Notes under the pieces: model-generated | Told to the model about the DNA's origin: nothing | Databases searched by the model: none | The model's input: the letters and a program-made list of their open reading frames with translations, nothing else | Made by a program: the position numbers and the translations under genes | Assembly (NCBI GenBank): GCA_015709205.1 | Contig: JACCQO010000005.1 | Location: 114,946-178,945 of the forward strand | Source: Desulfovibrionaceae bacterium | GTDB lineage: Bacteria; Desulfobacterota; Desulfovibrionia; Desulfovibrionales; Desulfovibrionaceae | Direction of reading: 5' to 3' | Length of the DNA: 64,000 bases | Shown here: in pieces, positions 38,962 through 50,397 of the stretch | Position numbering within the stretch: position 1 is the stretch's first letter | Layout of the letters: each line of letters begins with the position of its first letter

Positions 38962-40125
38962 CTAGGCCTCGGGCCGCGCGCCCAGGCGTTCGGCGGCCAG
39001 GGCCGCGAGCACGGCGGCCATGCGCCGCCGCTCCGGGGCCAGGGCATGGTCGGCCGCCAGGTGCGCGGCGCGGCGCATGCCGGCCGTCAGATAGGGCGCG
39101 AGCTGCGGAGCGGGGTCGGGCGCAGCCGAGACGGCCGTACCGTTGGCGGTGCGGCCGTTTTCGTCGTTGGCGGCGGAAGCGTTCGCGCCGGGCGCGTCGG
39201 GTGTCCGCAGGGCGGCGGCGGTCAGCCGGTCGGCGCGGGCGCGCAGTCGGCGCATGACCTCGAAGGCCTTGATGACCGAAAGGTCCGTGCCGGAATACTG
39301 GTGGCGCGGAATGTCCCGGAAGGTCGCGGCCGAGAGCCAGCGGTCCATGAACCGGGCCAGGTCGCGCGCGTCGCGGTCGTCGGAGAGCCGGGGCATGCGC
39401 ACGAGCAGGTCCACCTCCAGCCGGGCGAAGTCGGCCGTGGCGTCGGCCGGGCCCGCGGCGTCCAGCCCCGCCAGGAGCACGGTGGCGGGCGGCACCGCGC
39501 GCACCACGTCCAGGCCTAGGCGGTTGTGGCACACGCACACGGGCCAGGGGCGCGAGAACGCGGCCCGGCGCGGGGCCTCGCAGGCCAGGAAGCGGAAGGG
39601 ATTGGGCAGGTCGCGTTCCAGTTCCGGGCAGGCCAGGGCCCCTTCGTCCAGATCCGGGCCCAGGGCTTCGGCCGCGGCCTCGGGCAGGGTGTCCGGCGCA
39701 TGGTGCGCCGGCAGGCGGAAGGGCCGGACCTCGTCCGTGACGCAGCCCACGTACCAGGGGGCCAGGGTGCGGGCGAAGACGTGGTCGAACAGGGCGATGA
39801 CCGCGCCGATGGACGCGTTGGCGAAGTGCTCGCCCAGGGTCGGGGCGGCCACGCATTCCTGCGGCGCCGGACCGTGGGCCGCGAGCAGGGGCGCGCCGCC
39901 CGCCGCGGCGCGGGCCGAGGCCTCGGCTCGCACGGGCTCCATGCCCCGCGGCGTGATGCGCGGAACGTCGGAGAGATCCAGGAGCAGGGGACGGGACAGG
40001 GCCGCGGCCTTGGCTCGGACCTCATCCAGGGCCTGCTGCAGTCGTCGGCCGCCGGCGTCGTCCAGCGGGCCGGAGAGGGCGAGAATGTGGGCCGCGGAGT
40101 GCGTGGTGATGGCGATGGAAAGCAT
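38962..40125 (-). CDS. STAS-like protein at the end of the chemosensory operon
   Basis: A 387-residue cytoplasmic protein. Residues ~1-95 resemble a STAS (anti-sigma-antagonist-like) domain with PLLLDLSDVPRITPRGMEPV, in which the usual DSSG phosphosite is replaced by TPRG, so it is probably not phosphorylated in the classical way. The central region has several Cys and His (VCVCHN, ACEAPR). The C-terminus is Ala-rich with an Asn/Thr-rich linker. It is downstream of cheB on the same strand with a 200-base gap. The function is unknown; a scaffold or output-coupling role is only a guess. Confidence 0.7.
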   Translation of the reverse strand: MLSIAITTHSAAHILALSGPLDDAGGRRLQQALDEVRAKAAALSRPLLLDLSDVPRITPRGMEPVRAEASARAAAGGAPLLAAHGPAPQECVAAPTLGEHFANASIGAVIALFDHVFARTLAPWYVGCVTDEVRPFRLPAHHAPDTLPEAAAEALGPDLDEGALACPELERDLPNPFRFLACEAPRRAAFSRPWPVCVCHNRLGLDVVRAVPPATVLLAGLDAAGPADATADFARLEVDLLVRMPRLSDDRDARDLARFMDRWLSAATFRDIPRHQYSGTDLSVIKAFEVMRRLRARADRLTAAALRTPDAPGANASAANDENGRTANGTAVSAAPDPAPQLAPYLTAGMRRAAHLAADHALAPERRRMAAVLAALAAERLGARPEA

Positions 40126-40325
40126 GCTGGGTCCTGATCGGCGCTGCGGCGATCCGCTTAACCCCGGGGGACGGGCGGCCGTCGGCGCGGTCCGGAGTGT
40201 TGCAACAGGTGGCGGGAAAAAGCAAGGTTCCGGCCGAAGGTGTTTTCGCACGGGCGATTTCCCGTTGCGCACGGGCGCGCGCCGGGCTGCGGCCGCCGGT
40301 CCTCGTTCGCCTGTCCCGGCTGCGC

Positions 40326-41405
40326 CTAGTTGGCCGCGCGCACGATCTCCCGCGCGATCTGCGACAGGGGCACGACCTTGTCCACCCCGCCGAGCTTGAT
40401 GGCCTCCTGGGGCATGCCGAAGACCACGCAGCTTTTTTCGTCCTGGGCGAAGTTCATGGCCCCGGCGTCGTGCAGTTCGCGCATGCCCTTGGCTCCGTCG
40501 TCGCCCATGCCGGTCATGATCACGGCCACGGCGTTTTTGCCCGCGTAGCTGGCCGCGGAGCGGAAGAGCACGTCCACGGACGGGCGGTGGCGGCTGACCA
40601 TGGGGCCGTCCTTGACCTGCACGAAGTAGCGCGCCCCGCTGCGCTTGAGGAGCATGTGCCGGTTGCCCGGGGCGATGAGCGCCTGGCCGCGCAGCATGGA
40701 GTCGTTGTCGCGCGCCTCGCGCACGGTGATGGCGCACATCCGGTTGAGGCGGTCGGAAAACGCGGCGGTGAACTTTTCCGGCATGTGCTGGACGATGGCG
40801 ATGGGCGGACAGTCGCGCGGCAGGGCTTCGAGCACCTCGCGCAGGGCCTCGGTGCCGCCGGTGGACGCGCCGATGACGACCATCTTCTCGGTGGTCTCGG
40901 CCATGGCCCGTGCCGCGGGCGCGGCGAGCACGGCGTCGGCGGTGAGCTTGGGCTGCACCTCCATCCTGGGCGCGGCCGCGAGTTTCTTGGGGTTGCAGGC
41001 CGCCGCGGCGCGCACCGCGTCGCAGATGCGGATGCGCGACTCCTCCAGGAACTGCTTGGTGCCCACCTTGGGTTTGAGGATGATGTCCACGGCCCCGTAT
41101 TCCAGGGCCTTGAGCGTGGTCTCCGCGCCCTGTTCCGTGAGCGTGGAGCAGATCACCACCGGAATGGGGTGCTGGGCCATGAGCTTGCGCAGGAAGGTGA
41201 TGCCGTCCATGCGCGGCATCTCCACGTCCAGGGTGATCACGTCGGGCACCACGGACTCCAGCCGCTGCGCGGCCACGTAGGGGTCCGTGGCTACGCCCAC
41301 GACCTCGATGCCGGAGTCGGACTCCAGCACGGACTGCAGGGTCTGGCGGACCAGGGCCGAATCGTCGACGATGAGTACCTTGATGCGTTGTGCGGTCATG
41401 GGCAT
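40326..41405 (-). CDS. cheB: Protein-glutamate methylesterase/glutaminase CheB
   Basis: A 359-residue chemotaxis methylesterase that removes methyl groups from receptor glutamates. The N-terminal receiver has D14-D15 and phospho-acceptor D60 (ITLDVEMP). The C-terminal esterase has the triad S181 (IGASTGGT), H207 (VQHMPEKFT) and D303 (TGMGDDGA). The first ATG (MPMTAQ) may be replaced by the next Met two codons on. It lies 26 bp after cheR in the same operon. Phosphorylation by CheA would give adaptation. Confidence 0.95.
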
Positions 41406-41431: not shown

Positions 41432-42343
41432 TTAGTGCCTGCGGTACACCGTTGGCGCGACCTGCGTGAGCGGCAGGCTCATGCTCGTCAGGCTTTCGGA
41501 GTGGCCGATGAATACGAAGCCGCCGGGCCGCAGGTTGGCGCAGAACTTCTCGAAAAGCCGCTCCTGGGTCGGCCGGTCGAAATAGATGATCACGTTGCGG
41601 CAGAAGATGATGTCCATGGGGTCGCGGAAGGAGAAGGGCTGCATGAAGTTCAGGCGCCGGAATTCCACCTGTTGCCTGAGCTCGGGCGCGATGCGCACGA
41701 GCCTGCGCGTGCGGTCGCGGCTGCGCAGCAGGTACTTGCGCTTGAGGGGCTGGGGCACGGGTTCCACCCGGTCTTCGGCGTACACGGCGCGCACGCAGGC
41801 CTGCAGCGCACGGGTGGAGATGTCCGTGCCCAGGATGGAGTAGCGGAAGGAACTCTGCCGCGCGGCGAATTCGGCCAGGACCATGGCCAGGGTGTAGGGC
41901 TCCATGCCGAAGGAACAGCCCGCGCTCCAGACCTTCAGGGTGCGGGCTCCGGCGTGGCGGCGGTGCCAGTCGGGCAGCACCTCTTCGCTCAACAGGTCGA
42001 AGTGCTTGGGCTCACGGAAGAAGTCCGTGGTGTTGGTGGTTACCACGTCGATGAGGTGGGGCAGTTCCTCGGCAAAACCCTGTTCGCTGAAGAGGTAGTC
42101 GCAGTAGGCCCCGTAGTCCGGCAGGCCGCGCACGCGCAGCCGCTTCTGCAGCCGCGATTCGAGCATGGTCCGCTTGTTGGGGGGCATCTTGATGCCCACT
42201 TCCTCGTAGATGAAACGGCTGAAGCGCTCGAAGTCCTTGGCCTCCATGGGCCCGGGGCGGCACAGGTTCATGGCCGCGCAGGCGTGGTCCTTGCGGTCGT
42301 CGGAGCCCCGCGCGCCGGCCGTTCTGCGGTCCGCCGGGGCCAT
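41432..42343 (-). CDS. cheR: Chemotaxis methyltransferase CheR
   Basis: A 303-residue S-adenosylmethionine-dependent methyltransferase of receptor glutamates. It has the N-terminal helical domain ([19 protein letters not shown]), the AdoMet domain [31 protein letters not shown], and [18 protein letters not shown]. The beginning (MAPADRR...) is unconserved, so MNLCRP or MEAKDF could be the real start. The chosen ATG is one base after the cheA stop. No C-terminal TPR extension is present. Confidence 0.95.
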
Positions 42344-42344
42344 G

Positions 42345-44471
42345 CTAGTGCACCTGGGCCGCCGCAGCCAACTGGACGATCTTGGGCACGTCGAGGATCA
42401 GGGCCATGCTCCCGTCGCCCTTGATGGTCGCGCCGGAAATGCCCTCCACGTCGCGGTAGAAGCGGCCCAGGCTCTTGATCACGGTCTGGTGCTCGCCGAT
42501 GACGTGGTCCACCACGATGCCGATGCGCGAGCCCTGCACGCCCGCGACCACGATCTGCTCGATCTCCGGCCTCTTTCCCGGCAGCTCGAAGAGCTCGCGC
42601 AACCGGATGTAGGGCACGATCTCGCCGCGCAGGTTGACGATCTGCTCGCGCGAGTCGGACCCTTCGCGTCGGATCAGCTCCACGCATTCCTCCACCAGGG
42701 AAAGCGGCAGCACGAAGTAGTCCTCGTCCACCTTGACCTGCAGCCCGTCGATGATCGCCAGGGTCAGGGGGAGCTTGACGGTGATGGTCGTGCCCTTGCC
42801 CAGCGTGCTGTCGATGAGCACCGAGCCGCGCAGGGATTCGATGGAGCGCTTGACCACATCCATGCCCACGCCGCGGCCCGAGACGTTGGTGATCTTTTCC
42901 GCGGTGGAGAAGCCGGGCTGGAAGATCATGCCCAGCAGCTCCTTTCTGGACAGCTCCGTGTCCGGGGACATGAGCCCGCGCTCGATGGCCTTGGCCCGGA
43001 TCACCTCCGGGTCGATGCCCTTGCCGTCGTCCTCGATGCGGATCAGCACCTCGCCGCCGGAGTGCTCGGCCGAGAGCAGGATGGTGCCCTTGGCGGGCTT
43101 GCCCGCGGCCGTACGCTGCGCGGGCAGCTCCACGCCGTGGTCGATGCTGTTGCGCAGCAGGTGCACCAGCGGGTCGTTGAGGCGCTCGATGACGGTCTTG
43201 TCCAGTTCGGTCTCCGCCCCCTGGGTGGCCAGTTCGATCTCCTTGCCCAGTTCGGCGGAGAGGTCGCGCACCAGGCGGCGGAACTTGGAGAAGGTCGTGC
43301 CGATGGGCAGCATGCGGATGCCCAGGGTGGAGTCGCGTAGTTCGTCGGAAAGGCGTTCGAGTTGTTCGGCCAGGGACAGGAGCAGGGGCTGGTGCTGCCC
43401 GGCCGCGAATTGGCTGATCTGGGCCTGGACGATGACCAGTTCGCCCACCAGGTCCACAAGCTGATCGAGCTTGTCCGCGGCCACGCGGATGGAGGAAGCC
43501 ACGGTTTCGGTGGGCGCGGGCGCGGCGCGCTTCTGGCGTATCTCGCGCACGGCCTGCTGTTCGGCCAGGGCCGATTCCACCTGTTGGGAACTGACGAGCC
43601 CGGCCTCGGCGAGCGCGGTGCCGATGCGTTTCTGGCCGTCGAGCACACGCTTGAGGTCGCCCGGTGTCAGGTCGCCGCGTTCCACCAGGATCTCGCCCAG
43701 CTTCTTGTAGTCCTCGTCGCCCCCCAGGAGCCCCTGCTTGTCCACAGCCTGGATGAGGATGTCGCTTTCGTCCTCCACGAACAGGAAGACGTCGCGGATG
43801 GCCGCGCGCGGTTGGGTCGTGGCCAGGACCACGTCCCACCACAGGTAGATCTGCTCGGGGTCCAGCTCCTCCAGCGGGGGCAGGTCCTCGGTGTGCGTGA
43901 AGAGCAGGGCGGTGCCCAGCTCGGCGAGTTCGTCCAGCAGGGCCACGGGGTTGCCGCCCATCTGCATGATGTCGTGGTTGGGGCGGAAGCGCACCCGGTA
44001 GGTGACCGTGACCGCATCTTCCTCCTCTCCGGAGGCGTCGGGCGGGCAGGTGCCGTCCGCAAGCGGCGGGCCGGTTTCGCATTCCGGCTCCGGGGCCACG
44101 GCGCGCAGCCCGGCGATGATCTGGCGCGAGCGTTCGTGGTCCACGGCCGCGCCGGTTTCCGAGGCCGCGAGCATGGCCGCGATCTGGTCGCGCGAGGCCA
44201 GGGTCAGGTCCAGCAACTCCTTGGTCACGGCCACCAGGCCGTTGCGCACGCGGTCGAAGACCGTCTCCACCTCGTGGGTGAAGGCCGCGATGTCGTCGAA
44301 GCCGAACATGGCCCCCGAGCCCTTGATGGTGTGCATGGCCCGGAAGACGCGGTCGATGTTTTCCTGGTCGCCGGGATGCTCCTCGAGCTCCAGCAGCGCG
44401 GTCTCCAGTTCCGATAGGAGGTCCTGGGCTTCTTCCTTGAATGCCTGGCGGTTGATGTCGTCCTGGGACAT
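42345..44471 (-). CDS. cheA: Chemotaxis histidine kinase CheA
   Basis: A 708-residue CheA. The HPt domain has H47 in AMHTIKGSGAMFGF. A middle region (~130-330) differs from the usual P2 and includes an acidic patch. The P3 dimerisation helices, the P4 ATPase with NDPLVHLLRNSIDHGVE, EDDGKGID and GRGVGMDVVK, and the C-terminal P5 CheW-like domain follow. Residues ~255-295 (YKKLGEILVERGDLTPGDL and KRIGTALAEAGLVSSQQVES) are two short repeats of a kind seen in some deltaproteobacterial signalling proteins. It phosphorylates CheY and CheB. No separate CheW gene is in the operon. Confidence 0.95.
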   Translation of the reverse strand: MSQDDINRQAFKEEAQDLLSELETALLELEEHPGDQENIDRVFRAMHTIKGSGAMFGFDDIAAFTHEVETVFDRVRNGLVAVTKELLDLTLASRDQIAAMLAASETGAAVDHERSRQIIAGLRAVAPEPECETGPPLADGTCPPDASGEEEDAVTVTYRVRFRPNHDIMQMGGNPVALLDELAELGTALLFTHTEDLPPLEELDPEQIYLWWDVVLATTQPRAAIRDVFLFVEDESDILIQAVDKQGLLGGDEDYKKLGEILVERGDLTPGDLKRVLDGQKRIGTALAEAGLVSSQQVESALAEQQAVREIRQKRAAPAPTETVASSIRVAADKLDQLVDLVGELVIVQAQISQFAAGQHQPLLLSLAEQLERLSDELRDSTLGIRMLPIGTTFSKFRRLVRDLSAELGKEIELATQGAETELDKTVIERLNDPLVHLLRNSIDHGVELPAQRTAAGKPAKGTILLSAEHSGGEVLIRIEDDGKGIDPEVIRAKAIERGLMSPDTELSRKELLGMIFQPGFSTAEKITNVSGRGVGMDVVKRSIESLRGSVLIDSTLGKGTTITVKLPLTLAIIDGLQVKVDEDYFVLPLSLVEECVELIRREGSDSREQIVNLRGEIVPYIRLRELFELPGKRPEIEQIVVAGVQGSRIGIVVDHVIGEHQTVIKSLGRFYRDVEGISGATIKGDGSMALILDVPKIVQLAAAAQVH

Positions 44472-44520: not shown

Positions 44521-44883
44521 TCAGCGCAGCAGTTTCTGGACCACGGCCATGAGCTGGTCGGGCCGGAAGGGTTTGACGATCCAGCCCGTGGCCCCGGCCG
44601 CCTTGCCTTCCTGCTTGCGCGAGGCCTGCGATTCCGTGGTCAGCATGACGATGGGCACGAACTTGTAGGACGGATTGGCGCGCACGGCGCGGATCAGTTC
44701 GATGCCGTCCATGCGGGGCATGTTCAGGTCGGTGATGATCAGCTTGACCGGCCCGTTGAGTTTGGACACGGCGTCCTTGCCGTCCGATGCCTCGATCACG
44801 TCGTACCCGGCGTTCTTGAGCGTGAAGCTGACCATCTGCCGCACGCTCGCGGAATCGTCCACGGTCATTATGGTCTTCGACAT
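44521..44883 (-). CDS. cheY: Chemotaxis response regulator CheY
   Basis: A 120-residue single-domain receiver with D9-D10, phospho-acceptor D52 (IITDLNMP), Thr in VMLTTES and Lys in IVKPF. The start MSKTIM at 44883 has GGAGGA ~9 bases upstream; an earlier in-frame ATG (MRPGGRR) would add an unconserved leader. It is the immediate CheA target, lies 49 bp before cheA in the operon, and may act on the flagellar switch or another output. Confidence 0.94.
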   Translation of the reverse strand: MSKTIMTVDDSASVRQMVSFTLKNAGYDVIEASDGKDAVSKLNGPVKLIITDLNMPRMDGIELIRAVRANPSYKFVPIVMLTTESQASRKQEGKAAGATGWIVKPFRPDQLMAVVQKLLR

Positions 44884-44945
44884 GGTGCGTCGTCCTCCAG
44901 GGCGCATGCGCTACAGGCGGACCGGCCCTGTTCGGCCCGCCGGCG

Positions 44946-46766
44946 TCAGAACAGTTCGACGTTGTCGCCCAGGTCGTCGTCCCCGGCCGACGGCGGCCCC
45001 TGGGCATCGTCGGAAAAGAGTTCCACGTCGGTGGCCGCGAAGAGTTCGGCGTCGCTGTGCCGGGCGCCCGTGGAAACGGAGTCGTGCACCAGCCGCTCGG
45101 CCTCCATGGTGTAGCGGTCGAGCATGCGCTGCAGCCGCTCGGAGCGCGCGGCGCTGCCGTCGTGCGGTGCCAGGGCCAGGGCGGATTCGCCCACGGCCCG
45201 GATGCGCGCGCCCACCTCGGCGATCTCGCGGGCCACGTCCTCGTGAAAGGTCAGCCCGTCGGCAAAGGCGACGATGTCCGAGGCCAGGGCGTTGCTGCGC
45301 GTGCGGATGTCCCCGGAGATGCGGACCAGGCTCCGGTTGCCCCCCCGCAGCTCGGTGACGAAGCCCTCCAGGCGCTCGATGATCGCCGTGACCTGGGCCG
45401 TGTCCATGAAGCTCTCGGCACTGGCCTTGAGGGTTTCGGCCAGCGAGCCCACGGTGCGCAGCACGGCGGTCACGCCCTCGGTCTGCTCGCGCGCGCTGAT
45501 GGACAACCCCTGGATGGACGTGGCCAACACGCCCAGGGCCTTGCCCTCGTCGCCGGTGTGCGCGGCCTTGATGCTCGCGTTCAGGGCGATGAGCTCGATC
45601 TCCGTACCCACCTCCTCGATGTCGAGCAGGAAGCGGCCCATGTCGGCAACGGTGGAGGCCACGGAGGCCATCAGCCGTCCGATGGCCCCGCCGCGCTCCA
45701 CGTGCGCGCGCATGCCGCCGATGAGCCCCTGGATGGAGGTTTCCATGCGGTCCAGGGCCGAGACCGCGGAATGGTCGCCGCCGCCCGTGAGCACCCCGGC
45801 CGTGGACGCCACTTCCTCCACGCCCCCGGCCACGGTGCGCAGGTTGGCGCGGATGCGCTCCACGGCCTGGCCGAAGAGCCGTCCGGCGTGGCCCAGCTGG
45901 GAGGCCTGCAGGGCGCACACGTCGCCGCACCAGCCCACGATCTCGCGCTGGACGGCCTGGTCCTCCCGGCGGTCCTTGTGCTCGTGGAAGACGACGCTGA
46001 TTTCGTCCAGCGATTCCTCCACATGTTCCACCTGCTGGCGGGTGATGTCGTGGAACTGCACCGAGGCGATGATCTCGCCGACGTGCGCCGCGATGCCCGC
46101 GGTGTGGCGGGAAAGGTCGGCGGATACGGATTCGGACGTGCGCGCCATGTCCGCCAGGGCGGCCATGTCCTCGCGCATGCGGGCCATGTGCGTCCGTGCG
46201 GCCTCCTCCTGCTGGCGGCACATGGATTCGCTCTCACCCTTGGCGTCCTGCACGCTTTTGGCCAGGGATCGGCTGCGGCCGAGAATGTCCTTGGAATGGG
46301 TTTCGATGTTCACGGCCAGCCGCTCCACGTCGTCGGCCAGGGTGGTGAAGCCGCGCCCCTTGGAGCCCAGGCGGGCGCTCTCGATGCGCGTGGAGATGCC
46401 GAGCATCTGCAGTCGGCGGATCACGCCCTTGAACTCGCCCACGGCCTCGGCCAGGGTGTGCACGTGGCCGTCCACCTCGTCGAGCATGCCGATGTTGCTG
46501 CGGCTGACCTCGGCGTCGGACTGGCGCGCCAGGTCGTCCAGCTCGCCGCCTAGACGGCCCACGATGGCCTCCACGGCCGCGGCGTTGGTGGCCTCGGCCA
46601 GTTCCGAGGCCGCGCGCGAGAGGTCGGAAGAGGCCAGGGCAAACCGCTGCACGGCCGTCCCGAGCCCGAGGAAATCTTCCTCGCGCGCCTTGACGACCTT
46701 GGCCAGCGCCTTCTTGATGACGCCCAGCTCTGGCCCGTATTGCTCCGGAAACCCTGCGTACTCCAT
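44946..46766 (-). CDS. Soluble chemoreceptor-like coiled-coil protein with two signalling-tip repeats
   Basis: A 606-residue protein without membrane segments, almost all helical. Two degenerate MCP-tip-like regions occur: LGISTRIESARLGSKGRGF (~residues 122-145) and ELIALNASIKAAHTGDEG (~389-410), each followed by an EVRKLA-like helix. The acidic C-terminal tail repeats short ELF motifs (AELFAATDVELF, then DNVELF at the very end). The terminal NVELF resembles the CheR/CheB-docking pentapeptide of MCPs (NWETF-like). It lies between the H-NOX receptor and cheY and is likely part of the same array. The ligand is unknown. Confidence 0.75.
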   Translation of the reverse strand: MEYAGFPEQYGPELGVIKKALAKVVKAREEDFLGLGTAVQRFALASSDLSRAASELAEATNAAAVEAIVGRLGGELDDLARQSDAEVSRSNIGMLDEVDGHVHTLAEAVGEFKGVIRRLQMLGISTRIESARLGSKGRGFTTLADDVERLAVNIETHSKDILGRSRSLAKSVQDAKGESESMCRQQEEAARTHMARMREDMAALADMARTSESVSADLSRHTAGIAAHVGEIIASVQFHDITRQQVEHVEESLDEISVVFHEHKDRREDQAVQREIVGWCGDVCALQASQLGHAGRLFGQAVERIRANLRTVAGGVEEVASTAGVLTGGGDHSAVSALDRMETSIQGLIGGMRAHVERGGAIGRLMASVASTVADMGRFLLDIEEVGTEIELIALNASIKAAHTGDEGKALGVLATSIQGLSISAREQTEGVTAVLRTVGSLAETLKASAESFMDTAQVTAIIERLEGFVTELRGGNRSLVRISGDIRTRSNALASDIVAFADGLTFHEDVAREIAEVGARIRAVGESALALAPHDGSAARSERLQRMLDRYTMEAERLVHDSVSTGARHSDAELFAATDVELFSDDAQGPPSAGDDDLGDNVELF

Positions 46767-46820: not shown

Positions 46821-48812
46821 TCACGCCGGGAAGGTGATCTTGGCCCGCGCCGTGACCTCGTCCACGGGCTTGACCTCGATGGACGCCTTCTGCTTCAGGA
46901 ATTTGGCCGCTCCGTTGAGAATGCCTTCGAAATATTCGAACAGTCCCCGACCCGACTTGTAGGTCATGATCAGGGTGTCGCCCCGGTCCTCGTAGGTGAA
47001 GCGGGGCGGGTTGATGCCCGGGTAGTCGCGCGTGAGCTGGACGTGCACCTTGTCCATGCCCAGGTAGAGCTCCCTGAGGTCCGTGGTGCGGAAGTAGCGG
47101 CGGTAGACCTTGTGGAACCGGGCGATGGTGAACTCGCCGAACTTCATGAACACGTCGCGCGTTGTCGCCTTCGTGGCCTTGGCCACGAGGTGGGCCATCT
47201 GCTTGAGCACCTGGTCCGGATAGTTGGCCGTGGCCAGGAAGACCGGATCGCCCATCTCCGCCTGCATGTGCCGGTAGACGTCCTTGGGATAGGCCTCCTT
47301 GACGAAGTCCTGCATGATCTTGGGCAGCACGCCGCGCATCATGTCCTTGGACTTCCAGAACTTCGTGTTGTCCGTGCCGCGGTTGGAGAATTCCTGCGAC
47401 AGGGTCAGCAGATCCTGGGAGAGCTGGGCCAGACCGCGCGTGGCCTCGGCCGACTGCTGCGCGCCCTCGTCGGCCTCGTGGGCGATGGCGGCGATCTCCT
47501 CGATGGACTGGTTGATCTCTTCGGCCGCGGCGGACTGCTGCTCGGCGGCCGTGGCGATCTGGGTCACGCGCATGACCATGTCCTCGATGTTGCCCATGAT
47601 GCCCTGCAGGGCTTCGCCCGCCTGGTTGGCCAGATCCGTGGACTCGCGCACTTGCCGCTCCGTGGTCTGCATGGAGTCCATGGCCTGGCGCGAGCTGGCC
47701 TGGATGGTCTGCACCCCGGTTTCCACCTCCTTGGTGGCCACCATGGTCTTTTCCGCCAGCTTGCGCACCTCGTCGGCGACCACGGCGAAGCCGCGCCCGG
47801 CCTCGCCCGCGCGCGCCGCCTCGATGGCCGCGTTGAGCGCCAGAAGATTGGTCTGGTCCGCGATGTCGTTGATCACGTTGATGATCCTGCCGATCTCCTT
47901 GGCTTGGTTCTCCAACTGGTCGAGCACCTCGGCCAGCTTTCCGGCCGAGGTGGACACCTCGTTGATGCCCGCCACGGCGTGGCCGACCAGGTCCGCGCCG
48001 TCACGGGCCGAACGCTGCGCCGTCTCGGCGGCGTCGGACGTGCCCGAGGCGTTCTTGGCCACCTCCAGCACGGTGTCGGTCATCTCTTCCATGGCCGTGG
48101 ACACGGTGGTGGCTTGGTCGGACTGCTTCTGTGCGCCGCGCGCCTGCTCGTCGGCCGAGGCGGAAAGCTCCTCCGAGGCCGAGGCCAGCCGCTGGGCCAG
48201 TTCGCTGACGCGTCCGCCCGTGGCCATGAGCGTCTCCTGGCTCTTTTCCATCTCGCGCAACCGTCCGGCCACCTCCTGCATGTCCACCAGCACCGCCGTA
48301 GCCCCGAGCAGGGCGCCGTCCGCACCGTGCAACGGGGCGCAGGAAAGGGCCACCGCCCGCGTTCCCGCTCCGGTTCGTATGTCGGTCATGCCCGTGTAGG
48401 GTCTGCCGCTCAGGGCCTCGGCCAGGGGCGCGCCGCCCGCGGCCGTGGCCAGCTCGCGCCGGTCGCCCAGGAGCGCGGCCGCGCCCTTGCTGCGCGCCAC
48501 CGGCGCGCCGCCGGCCCCTGCGGCCAGGATGGGGGTTTCGCTCAGTTGCACGATGCCCTTGTAGAGTTCGAGTTCCGCGGCCGCGTCGGCCATTTCGGCC
48601 CGCAGGGCCGCCGTTTCGGCGGACGCGCGTTGCGTTCGGGCGCCTGCCGCCGTCCCGATGGCGGCCGTCACGCCCAGTCCCGCCACGATGCACACGCCAG
48701 CGGTGACGCCGCCGGGCAGCAGGTAAACGACCAGGGGCAGTGCGCACAGGACGATGCCCAGCAGCCAGACAAGTTTCGCCGAATTCGCGCCAGGGCGCGC
48801 AACGCTTTTCAT
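46821..48812 (-). CDS. Methyl-accepting chemotaxis protein with C-terminal H-NOX haem domain
   Basis: A 663-residue receptor. Two N-terminal membrane helices (residues ~13-57) are followed by a PAS-like cytoplasmic region, an MCP signalling hairpin with [20 protein letters not shown] (~315-350) and, from residue ~491 to the end, an H-NOX domain. Haem-ligand region MDKVHVQL gives proximal His H590, followed by GINPPRF. The haem-propionate motif YxSxR is Y618-S620-R622, and a Tyr in FEYF aligns with the O2-stabilising distal Tyr of obligate-anaerobe H-NOX proteins. The start ATG at 48812 (GGAG upstream) is preferred because the promoter lies upstream; a TTG at 48911 falls inside the -35. First gene of the che operon. 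Confidence 0.9.
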
Positions 48813-48882
48813 CGCGGTGATCTCCAAGCCCTCGACGGGGAGGAAGGAAGAAGGTGAATGAACCCCGACCCCAATTTCCCCG

Positions 48883-48911
48883 AATATACGAGCGAGTGCC
48901 AACAACCGCAA
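48883..48911 (-). promoter_or_regulatory. Sigma-70-type promoter of the chemosensory operon
   Basis: On the minus strand TTGCGG (48906-48911), 17 bases, TATATT (48883-48888). It lies about 70 bases before the H-NOX receptor ATG. No GG-N10-GC sigma-54 pattern or clear sigma-28 pattern was found here. Confidence 0.6.
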
Positions 48912-49011
48912 CCCTTTGGCGCGAAGACATCGTCCGACTCGGTCTCGGGCCGCGTCTGCCGCGTCCTGCCGTCTTCGGGAGACTATAGGGAAGCCGAATG
49001 GAATGGGGATA

Positions 49012-50397
49012 TTATTTTTTTGGACGGGAGGATGCGCCGAAAAGTCGCGCCTGGAGGGTGGCCACGGTGTCTACTCCGGCGCCCTTGTCTGGCCCGTCGG
49101 GGAGGCGGTGGTGGAACAGGGGATCGTAGCCCAGGCGTTCGGCCTGGCGGCGGCGCATCTCGTGGCCCACCACGGGTCGCACCTGGCCGTTGAGGTCCAC
49201 CTCGCCCCAGAAGGCCGCGCCCGGGGGCAGGGGCACGTCGTAGAAGGAGGAGAGCAGGGCCGCGGCCAGCCCCAGGTCCAGCCCGGGATCCTGCATGCGC
49301 AGCCCGCCGCCGATCTTGGCGTAGATGTCCACCTCGCCGAAGTTCAGGCGCAGCCGCTTTTCCAGCACGGCCACCAGCAGGTGCAGCCGGTTGGCGTCGA
49401 ACCCCAGGGCCGTGCGTCGGGGAATGGACAGGTAGCTGCGGCTGACCAGGGCCTGGATCTCCACGGCGAAGGGCCGGTGGCCGTCGGCCGCGAGCACGAT
49501 GGACGTGCCCGAGAGTCTGGGATCGCGCGCGCCCAGGAAGAAGGTGGACGGGTCGTCCACCACCTGCATGCCGCGCCCGCCCATGTGGAAGACGACCATG
49601 TCGTCCGTGGGCCCGAAGCGGTTCTTGAGCACGCGCAGGAGCCGGAAGACCTGGCGGCGGTCGCCCTCCAGGGAGAGCACGGTATCGACCATGTGCTCCA
49701 GGAGCTTGGGGCCCGCAAGCTGGCCGTCCTTGGTCACGTGGCCCACGAGGATCAGCGCGCACCCGGCGCGCTTGCAGCGCTCGATGAGTTCCGTGGCCAC
49801 GGCGCGGACCTGGCCTGGGCTGCCGGGCAGCCCTTCGGCCTGGGGCGAGCCCAGGGTCTGCACCGAGTCGGCGATGAGCAGCCGGGGCGGGTGCGGGCCC
49901 TCGATCAGGTCCAGGGCGTCCTCCACGCGCGTGGAGGCCATGGCCGCGAGCCCGGCGTCGAGCACGCCGAGGCGCTCGGCGCGGCCGCGCAACTGGCCCA
50001 GGGACTCCTCGCCCGAGTGGTAGACGCAGGCCGGGGCCTCGGGCGAGCCCGAGCGGGCCACGTGTCCGGCCACCTGGAGGAGCAGGGTGGACTTGCCGAT
50101 GCCCGGCTCGCCGCCCAGGAGCACGGCCTGGCCCGGCACCAGCCCGGTGCCGAGCAGTTCGTCCACGGCGCGGATGCCGGAGCTGAAGGCCCCGGCGGCC
50201 TCGGCGTCCACCGCGCCCAGGTCAACGGGGCGCGGTGCGGCCGAACCGGTGCGGCGCGCGGTGCGCCCCGGTGCGGTGGCGGTCTCGGTCACGGGTTCCA
50301 GGGTGTTCCAGGCCCCGCACGCGGGGCACTGGCCGCGCCACTGGGGCGTGCGCGCGGAGCAGGCGGAACAGGCGTAGACGGTACGGGATTTGGCCAT
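49012..50397 (-). CDS. radA: DNA repair/branch-migration protein RadA
   Basis: A 461-residue RadA (Sms), a RecA-like ATPase that promotes branch migration during recombinational repair. The N-terminal four-Cys zinc finger [19 protein letters not shown] is followed by Walker [11 protein letters not shown] (~96-105), the RadA-specific KNRFG motif and a C-terminal Lon-protease-like domain lacking the catalytic Ser. The start [10 protein letters not shown] at 50397 is canonical; upstream in-frame residues are Pro/Arg-rich and unlikely to be translated. It is on the same strand as the che operon but appears separate. Confidence 0.95.

What the first reader, a model, noticed from the sequence alone, without database searches (positions are those of the whole stretch)
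46821..48812. Chemoreceptor with a C-terminal H-NOX haem sensor
The H-NOX domain follows the MCP signalling hairpin instead of preceding it, with proximal H590, YxSxR at 618-622 and a Tyr aligned with the O2-binding distal Tyr of anaerobe H-NOX proteins. How a C-terminal sensor signals back into the hairpin is unclear, and it predicts O2 or NO taxis in an anaerobe.
Basis: partly seen in the sequence, partly recalled or inferred. Interest (0 to 1): 0.74.

Follow-up and report, generated by a model that had tools for sequence, protein, structure and literature searches.

The report
Chemotaxis receptor with rear-mounted gas sensor
This gene encodes a chemotaxis receptor from an anaerobic, Desulfovibrio-like bacterium whose haem-type gas-sensing domain sits at the tail end instead of the usual front end; many related bacteria share this layout, and the protein most likely steers swimming in response to oxygen.

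Summary
Confirmed. Window 46821-48812 (- strand) encodes a 663-residue chemoreceptor: two predicted transmembrane helices, a weak PAS region, an MCP hairpin and a C-terminal H-NOX domain. The layout is not a one-off: the MCP core precedes H-NOX in 52 of 52 distinct loci with a readable core, this one included, and the distance between them is almost fixed (163-166 residues, 52 of 52). The distal Tyr is present in 55 of 55 readable fused relatives and 0 of 6 stand-alone H-NOX proteins from the same phylum. One clostridial relative has the opposite order. The other two residues of the classical O2 pocket, Trp9 and Asn74, are Met500 and Thr562 here. The signalling puzzle is smaller than stated: an antiparallel hairpin returns its C-terminus to its membrane-proximal end, and DcrH and TlpD also carry C-terminal sensors. 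Best reading: an O2 (possibly NO) taxis receptor heading a che operon. Haem binding and taxis are untested.

The parts
46821..48812 (-). H-NOX chemoreceptor gene, 663 aa plus stop
   Evidence: ATG with GGAG nine bases upstream seen in the sequence
48657..48773 (-). Two predicted transmembrane helices, residues 14-32 and 34-52, with almost no periplasmic loop
   Evidence: hydropathy scan; helices 9-31 and 35-90 in the model
48279..48542 (-). PAS-like region, about residues 91-178 (degenerate in this copy)
   Evidence: PAS_4 E 0.013, 16.2 bits under the 23.1 cut-off; PAS model matched at E<=0.01 by 32 of the 35 members of A2, the window not among the families listed for it; strands and helices 95-177 in the model
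47388..48281 (-). MCP signalling hairpin, residues 178-475
47343..47387 (-). Linker between hairpin and H-NOX, residues 476-490, near-constant length
   Evidence: L468 to M492 is 24 residues in 28 of 35, 23 in 3, 22 in 4
46824..47342 (-). C-terminal H-NOX (HNOB) domain, residues 491-663
47043..47045 (-). H590, predicted proximal haem ligand
   Evidence: 56 of 56 other fused sequences and 6 of 6 stand-alone
46947..46961 (-). Y618-x-S620-x-R622, haem propionate motif
   Evidence: 55 of 55 readable fused and 6 of 6 stand-alone
46932..46934 (-). Y627, distal Tyr (Tyr140 equivalent)
   Evidence: 55 of 55 readable fused, 0 of 6 stand-alone, present in clostridial L074
47127..47129 (-). T562 in place of Asn74
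   Evidence: T 51 and S 5 of 56 fused relatives; N in L074
47313..47315 (-). M500 in place of Trp9
   Evidence: M 42, T 6, A 4, I 2, V 2 of 56 fused relatives; W in L074
44946..46766 (-). Next gene: 606 aa protein with two MCP-like stretches
   Evidence: Pfam MCPsignal, 2 stretches, E 1.5e-14; same place in 7 of 44 named loci
44521..44907 (-). CheY-like response regulator
   Evidence: Pfam Response_reg
42345..44471 (-). CheA kinase
   Evidence: Pfam Hpt, H-kinase_dim, HATPase_c, CheW; CheA near the receptor in 18 of 44 named loci
41432..42343 (-). CheR methyltransferase
   Evidence: Pfam CheR
40326..41405 (-). CheB methylesterase
   Evidence: Pfam CheB_methylest, Response_reg

Best explanation
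A membrane-anchored chemoreceptor of a Desulfovibrionaceae bacterium that reads a cytosolic diatomic gas, most likely O2, with a C-terminal haem H-NOX domain and passes the signal to the CheA of the same gene cluster. Shown from sequence: domain order, key residues, conserved tip-to-H-NOX spacing, operon position, membership of a clade with the same layout. Inferred: haem b bound at H590; O2 held by Y627, perhaps helped by T562; on binding, the distal subdomain (helix A, whose start follows the linker) turns against the proximal one, as described for other H-NOX domains; because the linker has near-constant length and joins helix A to the C-terminal helix of the hairpin, this turn changes the packing of the membrane-proximal (methylation-side) bundle and so the kinase. 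The PAS region enters the same end of the bundle from the N-terminal side, so two inputs may converge. CheR and CheB in the same cluster would adapt it. Whether the response is attraction or avoidance is not predicted.
For: Domains and order. Key residues. MCP core before H-NOX in 52 of 52 distinct loci with a readable core, own copy included; spacing 165 in 41, 164 in 5, 163 in 5, 166 in 1. Distal Tyr in 55 of 55 readable fused and 0 of 6 stand-alone. Fused rows form one group in the H-NOX tree, 97/99, though drawn with long branches to the rest. Own cluster 606 aa MCP-like - CheY - CheA - CheR - CheB follows; own genome has 2 CheA, 9 flagellin_N matches. No Cys in H-NOX. Literature: Tyr-bearing, MCP-fused anaerobe H-NOX bind O2 (passages); distal subdomain rotation (passages); aerotaxis reported in Desulfovibrio (passages); C-terminal sensors in DcrH and TlpD (passages).
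Against: No direct evidence of haem or gas binding. Trp9 and Asn74 of the O2-binding triad are not kept, so O2 affinity is uncertain. PMC7356049 (passages) warns that the distal pocket alone does not decide ligand binding. CheA was found near the gene in only 18 of 44 named loci (some loci are cut by contig ends). The AlphaFold model is a monomer with low confidence in the hairpin and pTM 0.44, so the placing of H-NOX on the hairpin is not shown; in the domain-only model the linker stretch was under pLDDT 50 (those columns were gaps in the other rows).
Confidence: 0.6

Rival explanations
1. NO sensor: the domain binds O2 weakly or not at all and reports NO for taxis away from or towards denitrifying neighbours.
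For: H-NOX domains with H102 and YxSxR commonly bind NO (passages); Trp9 and Asn74 are lost.
Against: Distal Tyr kept in 55 of 55 readable fused relatives, absent in 6 of 6 stand-alone ones of the phylum; papers tie this Tyr to O2 binding in anaerobes (passages).
Confidence: 0.2
2. The H-NOX domain is mainly a localisation, dimerisation or array-spacing module and the PAS region is the real sensor.
For: C-terminal domains can serve localisation (TlpD C-terminus, title and abstract listing of PMC13001251); PAS model matched at E<=0.01 by 32 of 35 members; fixed spacing could be architectural.
Against: Haem-pocket residues are the invariant ones: H590, Y618, S620, R622, Y627 in 35 of 35 rows, while PAS is degenerate in the window copy.
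Confidence: 0.1
3. The H-NOX domain acts in trans on the neighbouring 606 aa MCP-like protein or on CheA instead of through its own hairpin.
For: The 606 aa gene lies between the receptor and CheY in 7 of 44 named loci; stand-alone H-NOX proteins elsewhere act on partners in trans (passages).
Against: The receptor is kept without the 606 aa neighbour in the other 37 of 44 loci as fetched (some are cut), and the fixed covalent spacing points to coupling in cis.
Confidence: 0.05

Closest known systems
Caldanaerobacter (Thermoanaerobacter) tengcongensis H-NOX chemoreceptor (1u4h and others)
   Same: H-NOX with proximal His, YxSxR, distal Tyr, fused to an MCP in an anaerobe
   Different: There the H-NOX is N-terminal (PDB chains start at residue 1; [quoted passage not shown] here C-terminal. 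Trp9 and Asn74 replaced by Met and Thr. About 26% identity over 172 residues.
Clostridial H-NOX chemoreceptor of Acetoanaerobium noterae (L074)
   Same: H-NOX plus MCP core in one frame, distal Tyr
   Different: Order is H-NOX, hydrophobic segment, MCP; pocket is Trp/Asn/Tyr
C-terminal H-NOX chemoreceptors of other Desulfovibrionales (L020-L023 Nitratidesulfovibrio and Desulfovibrio sp. A2 and others)
   Same: Same order, same pocket, near-constant spacing; L020-L022 share RadA before and 606 aa protein, CheY, CheA after
   Different: Full-length identity to the window 38-53%; most have a longer stretch between membrane and PAS (TM2 end to P94: 67 in 23 of 35, 42 in the window and one other)
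Desulfovibrio vulgaris DcrH
   Same: O2-binding sensor C-terminal to the MCP domain (passages of PMC9388753); a similar MCP-hemerythrin frame exists in the window's own genome (L075)
   Different: Hemerythrin, not H-NOX; in L075 a long Ala/Gly/Pro/Lys linker instead of a short near-fixed one
Helicobacter pylori TlpD
   Same: PAS, MA hairpin, C-terminal sensor, seen in full-length crystal structures with the sensor straddling the coiled coil (passages of preprint PMC12871147)
   Different: Soluble, zinc-binding CZB domain
Desulfovibrio desulfuricans H-NOX fragment 728-899 (recalled, no call)
   Same: I recall a C-terminal-numbered H-NOX fragment used in O2-carrier work, and a 2003 survey by Iyer, Anantharaman and Aravind listing MCP fusions
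   Different: Not checked: the 2003 paper was not held and no listing showed the fragment

Membership tests
H-NOX / HNOB (PF07700) | Pfam HNOB score over the curated cut-off | tested here: met
   119.2 bits against 25.5
H-NOX / HNOB (PF07700) | Proximal His and YxSxR | tested here: met
   H590, Y618/S620/R622
H-NOX / HNOB (PF07700) | H-NOX fold | tested here: met
H-NOX / HNOB (PF07700) | Binds haem | not testable with these tools
   needs protein
O2-binding H-NOX subclass | Distal Tyr at position 140 | tested here: met
   Y627
O2-binding H-NOX subclass | Trp9 and Asn74 supporting Tyr140 | tested here: not met
   M500 and T562
O2-binding H-NOX subclass | Stable Fe(II)-O2 complex | not testable with these tools
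   needs spectroscopy
Methyl-accepting chemotaxis protein | MCP signalling domain and conserved tip | tested here: met
   168.5 bits against 34.6; A325-G336 tip run invariant in 35 of 35
Methyl-accepting chemotaxis protein | Methylation by CheR/CheB | not testable with these tools
   cheR and cheB lie in the same cluster; sites not mapped
N-terminal H-NOX-MCP (Caldanaerobacter type) | H-NOX before the MCP domain | tested here: not met
   H-NOX is C-terminal
DcrH-type receptor | C-terminal hemerythrin | tested here: not met
   no hemerythrin among the four Pfam matches; C-terminal domain is HNOB

The most novel reading that the evidence does not exclude
Desulfovibrionales have evolved their own O2-sensing H-NOX chemoreceptor class, apart from the clostridial one: a whole H-NOX unit, its start Met still kept (M492 invariant in 35 of 35), was joined behind an MCP. 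It uses a Met/Thr/Tyr pocket in place of Trp/Asn/Tyr and transmits through helix A and the distal subdomain over a near-fixed linker, the reverse of the N-terminal design, which transmits through the proximal end of H-NOX.
Probability: 0.35. Interest if true: 0.6.

Novelty: new variant of a known kind. Interest (0 to 1): 0.42.

Why it matters
H-NOX domains are the bacterial kin of the NO sensor of animals, and how their small haem movements reach an output domain is still debated. Two natural designs, sensor in front and sensor behind the same output hairpin, would separate what the proximal and the distal subdomain contribute. The clade also gives a natural test of which pocket residues beyond the distal Tyr are needed for O2, and a candidate receptor for the aerotaxis reported in Desulfovibrio.

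Tried and rejected
Chance or misread frame: rejected. One-off fusion or assembly artefact: rejected, since the same order is seen in many genomes. Cysteine or zinc redox sensing as proposed for some H-NOX proteins: unlikely, as the only Cys are at 23, 41 and 158. MCP heptad class: NCBIfam comparison (CtpM 201-475 on 282-556, Tar-type 178-457 on 244-495) suggests a 40-heptad class by recalled class names, while a gapless 297-residue superposition on 2ch7 cannot tell 40 from 44; left open. Promoter search: no sigma-70-like site in 48700-49100; a sigma-28-like pattern with up to 3 mismatches gave 18 matches in the window (8.8 expected, none of 100 shuffles reached 18), none between 48813 and 49011; not pursued. 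Domain-order survey outside the phylum: only one clostridial record (L074) could be read; the plasmid collection gave 3 hits, of which two were not opened. The genome contigs patterns were made from the C-terminal family itself, so that scan cannot count other layouts. In the tree, the stand-alone and clostridial rows have long branches and their placing is unsure. Papers: no listing in the ten searches showed a C-terminal H-NOX chemoreceptor in title or abstract; the library holds open-licence papers only and titles beyond the listed rows were not seen, so absence from print is not claimed.

Rows dropped before counts: 9 repeated loci (L003, L006, L009, L011, L015, L016, L017, L066, L070); L008 is the window's own copy (counted in the 52, not in the 56). 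L019 has a cut frame and was left out of the fused set; L061 is cut at the contig end and lacks the residues after H590's region. L024, L038, L042, L048 and L055 show MCP sequence in frame before H-NOX but no readable core (contig ends, N runs or a broken frame): they are in the 56, not in the 52.

Full report

ANATOMY. A hydropathy scan gives two transmembrane helices, 14-32 and 34-52, with hardly any loop; 31 of 34 full-length relatives show at least two such segments, 3 show one. There is thus no periplasmic sensor, and both the PAS region and the H-NOX should lie in the cytosol. PAS is weak in this copy (E 0.013), while 32 of 35 aligned members match a PAS model at E<=0.01. The hairpin is one helical stretch 178-475 in the model, followed by a linker 476-490 and the H-NOX. 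Mean pLDDT is 64 for residues 471-480, 80 for 481-490 and 88 for 491-500; in the domain-only model the first nine residues were under 50.

HOW WIDESPREAD. HNOB was found in 19 of 60 relatives and 12 of 395 genomes drawn from the phylum. Of the 19, 18 have MCP sequence in frame before H-NOX and one (L019) has a cut frame. Of the 12, six are of the window's family with open frames of 717-749 aa, and six belong to other families with frames of 186-246 aa, i.e. stand-alone. A scan of named genomes gave 44 loci: 39 with a readable MCP core, 39 of 39 before H-NOX, and 5 where the core is not readable but MCP sequence stands in front. Most labels are Desulfovibrionales; a few bins are labelled Proteobacteria, Deltaproteobacteria or Planctomycetaceae and fall inside the Desulfovibrionales groups of the tree, except L063, which sits near its base. 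After removal of 9 repeats there are 52 distinct loci with a readable core, the window's own copy among them (39 named, 13 unnamed), and 52 of 52 have the core first. In the one clostridial record read (Acetoanaerobium noterae, L074) the order is H-NOX, hydrophobic segment, MCP.

FIXED SPACING. From the tip motif [10 protein letters not shown] to the M[KRV]G at the start of H-NOX the distance is 165 in 41, 164 in 5, 163 in 5 and 166 in 1 of 52 loci. In the 35-row alignment the C-terminal arm E331-L468 is 137 residues in 35 of 35 and the step L468-M492 is 24 in 28, 23 in 3 and 22 in 4, while TM2 to PAS varies from 42 to 67. The single contrast at hand, an MCP with C-terminal hemerythrin in the same genome (L075), has a long Ala/Gly/Pro/Lys linker. 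M492, which matches residue 1 of solved H-NOX proteins, is invariant in 35 of 35.

POCKET. His102: 56 of 56 fused relatives, 6 of 6 stand-alone. Tyr140: 55 of 55 readable fused, 0 of 6 stand-alone (M, V or L instead). Asn74 position: T 51, S 5 of 56. Trp9 position: M 42, T 6, A 4, I 2, V 2 of 56. L074 has Trp, Asn and Tyr. So the clade keeps the Tyr but not its two partners.

CONTEXT. The receptor is followed on the same strand by a 606 aa protein with two MCP-like stretches, CheY, CheA, CheR and CheB, with gaps from 1 to 54 bases. CheA was found in 18 of 44 named loci, the 606 aa protein and CheY in 7 of 44 (some loci are cut short). The genome has 2 CheA matches, 9 flagellin_N, 8 hemerythrin and one full-length cytochrome bd subunit I match plus one weak partial.

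MECHANISM. In an MCP hairpin the second helix runs back to the membrane-proximal end, so a C-terminal domain is attached where N-terminal HAMP or PAS inputs also enter (established knowledge). TlpD, with the order PAS, MA, CZB, shows this in crystals: the CZB domains straddle the coiled coil and the disturbance passes to the MA helix (passages of preprint PMC12871147). DcrH has a hemerythrin in the same place (passages of PMC9388753). In H-NOX domains ligand binding turns the distal subdomain, helices A-E, by about 4 degrees (passage of PMC8196705). Here helix A follows the linker, so the distal subdomain is the one attached to the hairpin; in the N-terminal design it is the proximal end. I infer that the turn pulls on the C-terminal helix through the near-fixed linker. 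This is inference; no dimer model was made.

LIGAND. Passages seen in PMC12329717 and PMC8738867 link the distal Tyr and MCP fusion in anaerobes to O2. Loss of Trp9 and Asn74 leaves the affinity open. PMC9814294 (passage) notes that even for the Caldanaerobacter protein the O2-sensor function is not shown in vivo. Aerotaxis in Desulfovibrio is reported (passage of PMC3944678).

NOVELTY. MCP-fused H-NOX is known; [quoted passage not shown] I recall, without a call, a D. desulfuricans H-NOX fragment numbered 728-899, which would be of this kind; L020 has a frame of 901 residues with H-NOX from 722. So the layout has probably been seen before, and this protein is a member of a conserved but little-described variant.

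Noticed in passing
42345-44471 (-): CheA has a near-threshold match to an MshE-type c-di-GMP-binding motif (NF053729, residues 257-305, 36.8 bits, cut-off 38) before its dimerisation domain; a CheA-architecture preprint (PMC10542144) held no mention of MshEN or c-di-GMP.
   Followed up: partly
44946-46766 (-): A 606 aa protein with two MCP-like stretches, found between the receptor and CheY in 7 of 44 named loci.
   Followed up: partly
38962-40098 (-): Gene after cheB with only a weak, sub-threshold TCAD9 match (24 bits, cut-off 40).
   Followed up: no
L075 (own genome, contig C16:27500-31800): MCP with a C-terminal hemerythrin behind a long low-complexity linker, DcrH-like, in the same genome.
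   Followed up: partly
L076 (own genome, contig C90:5500-10500): A 935-residue frame with a C-terminal hemerythrin match and no MCP core; other domains not identified.
   Followed up: no
window, whole: A sigma-28-like pattern with up to 3 mismatches is more frequent than in shuffles (18 against a mean of 8.8); best one, 2 mismatches, at 40135-40161 (-).
   Followed up: no
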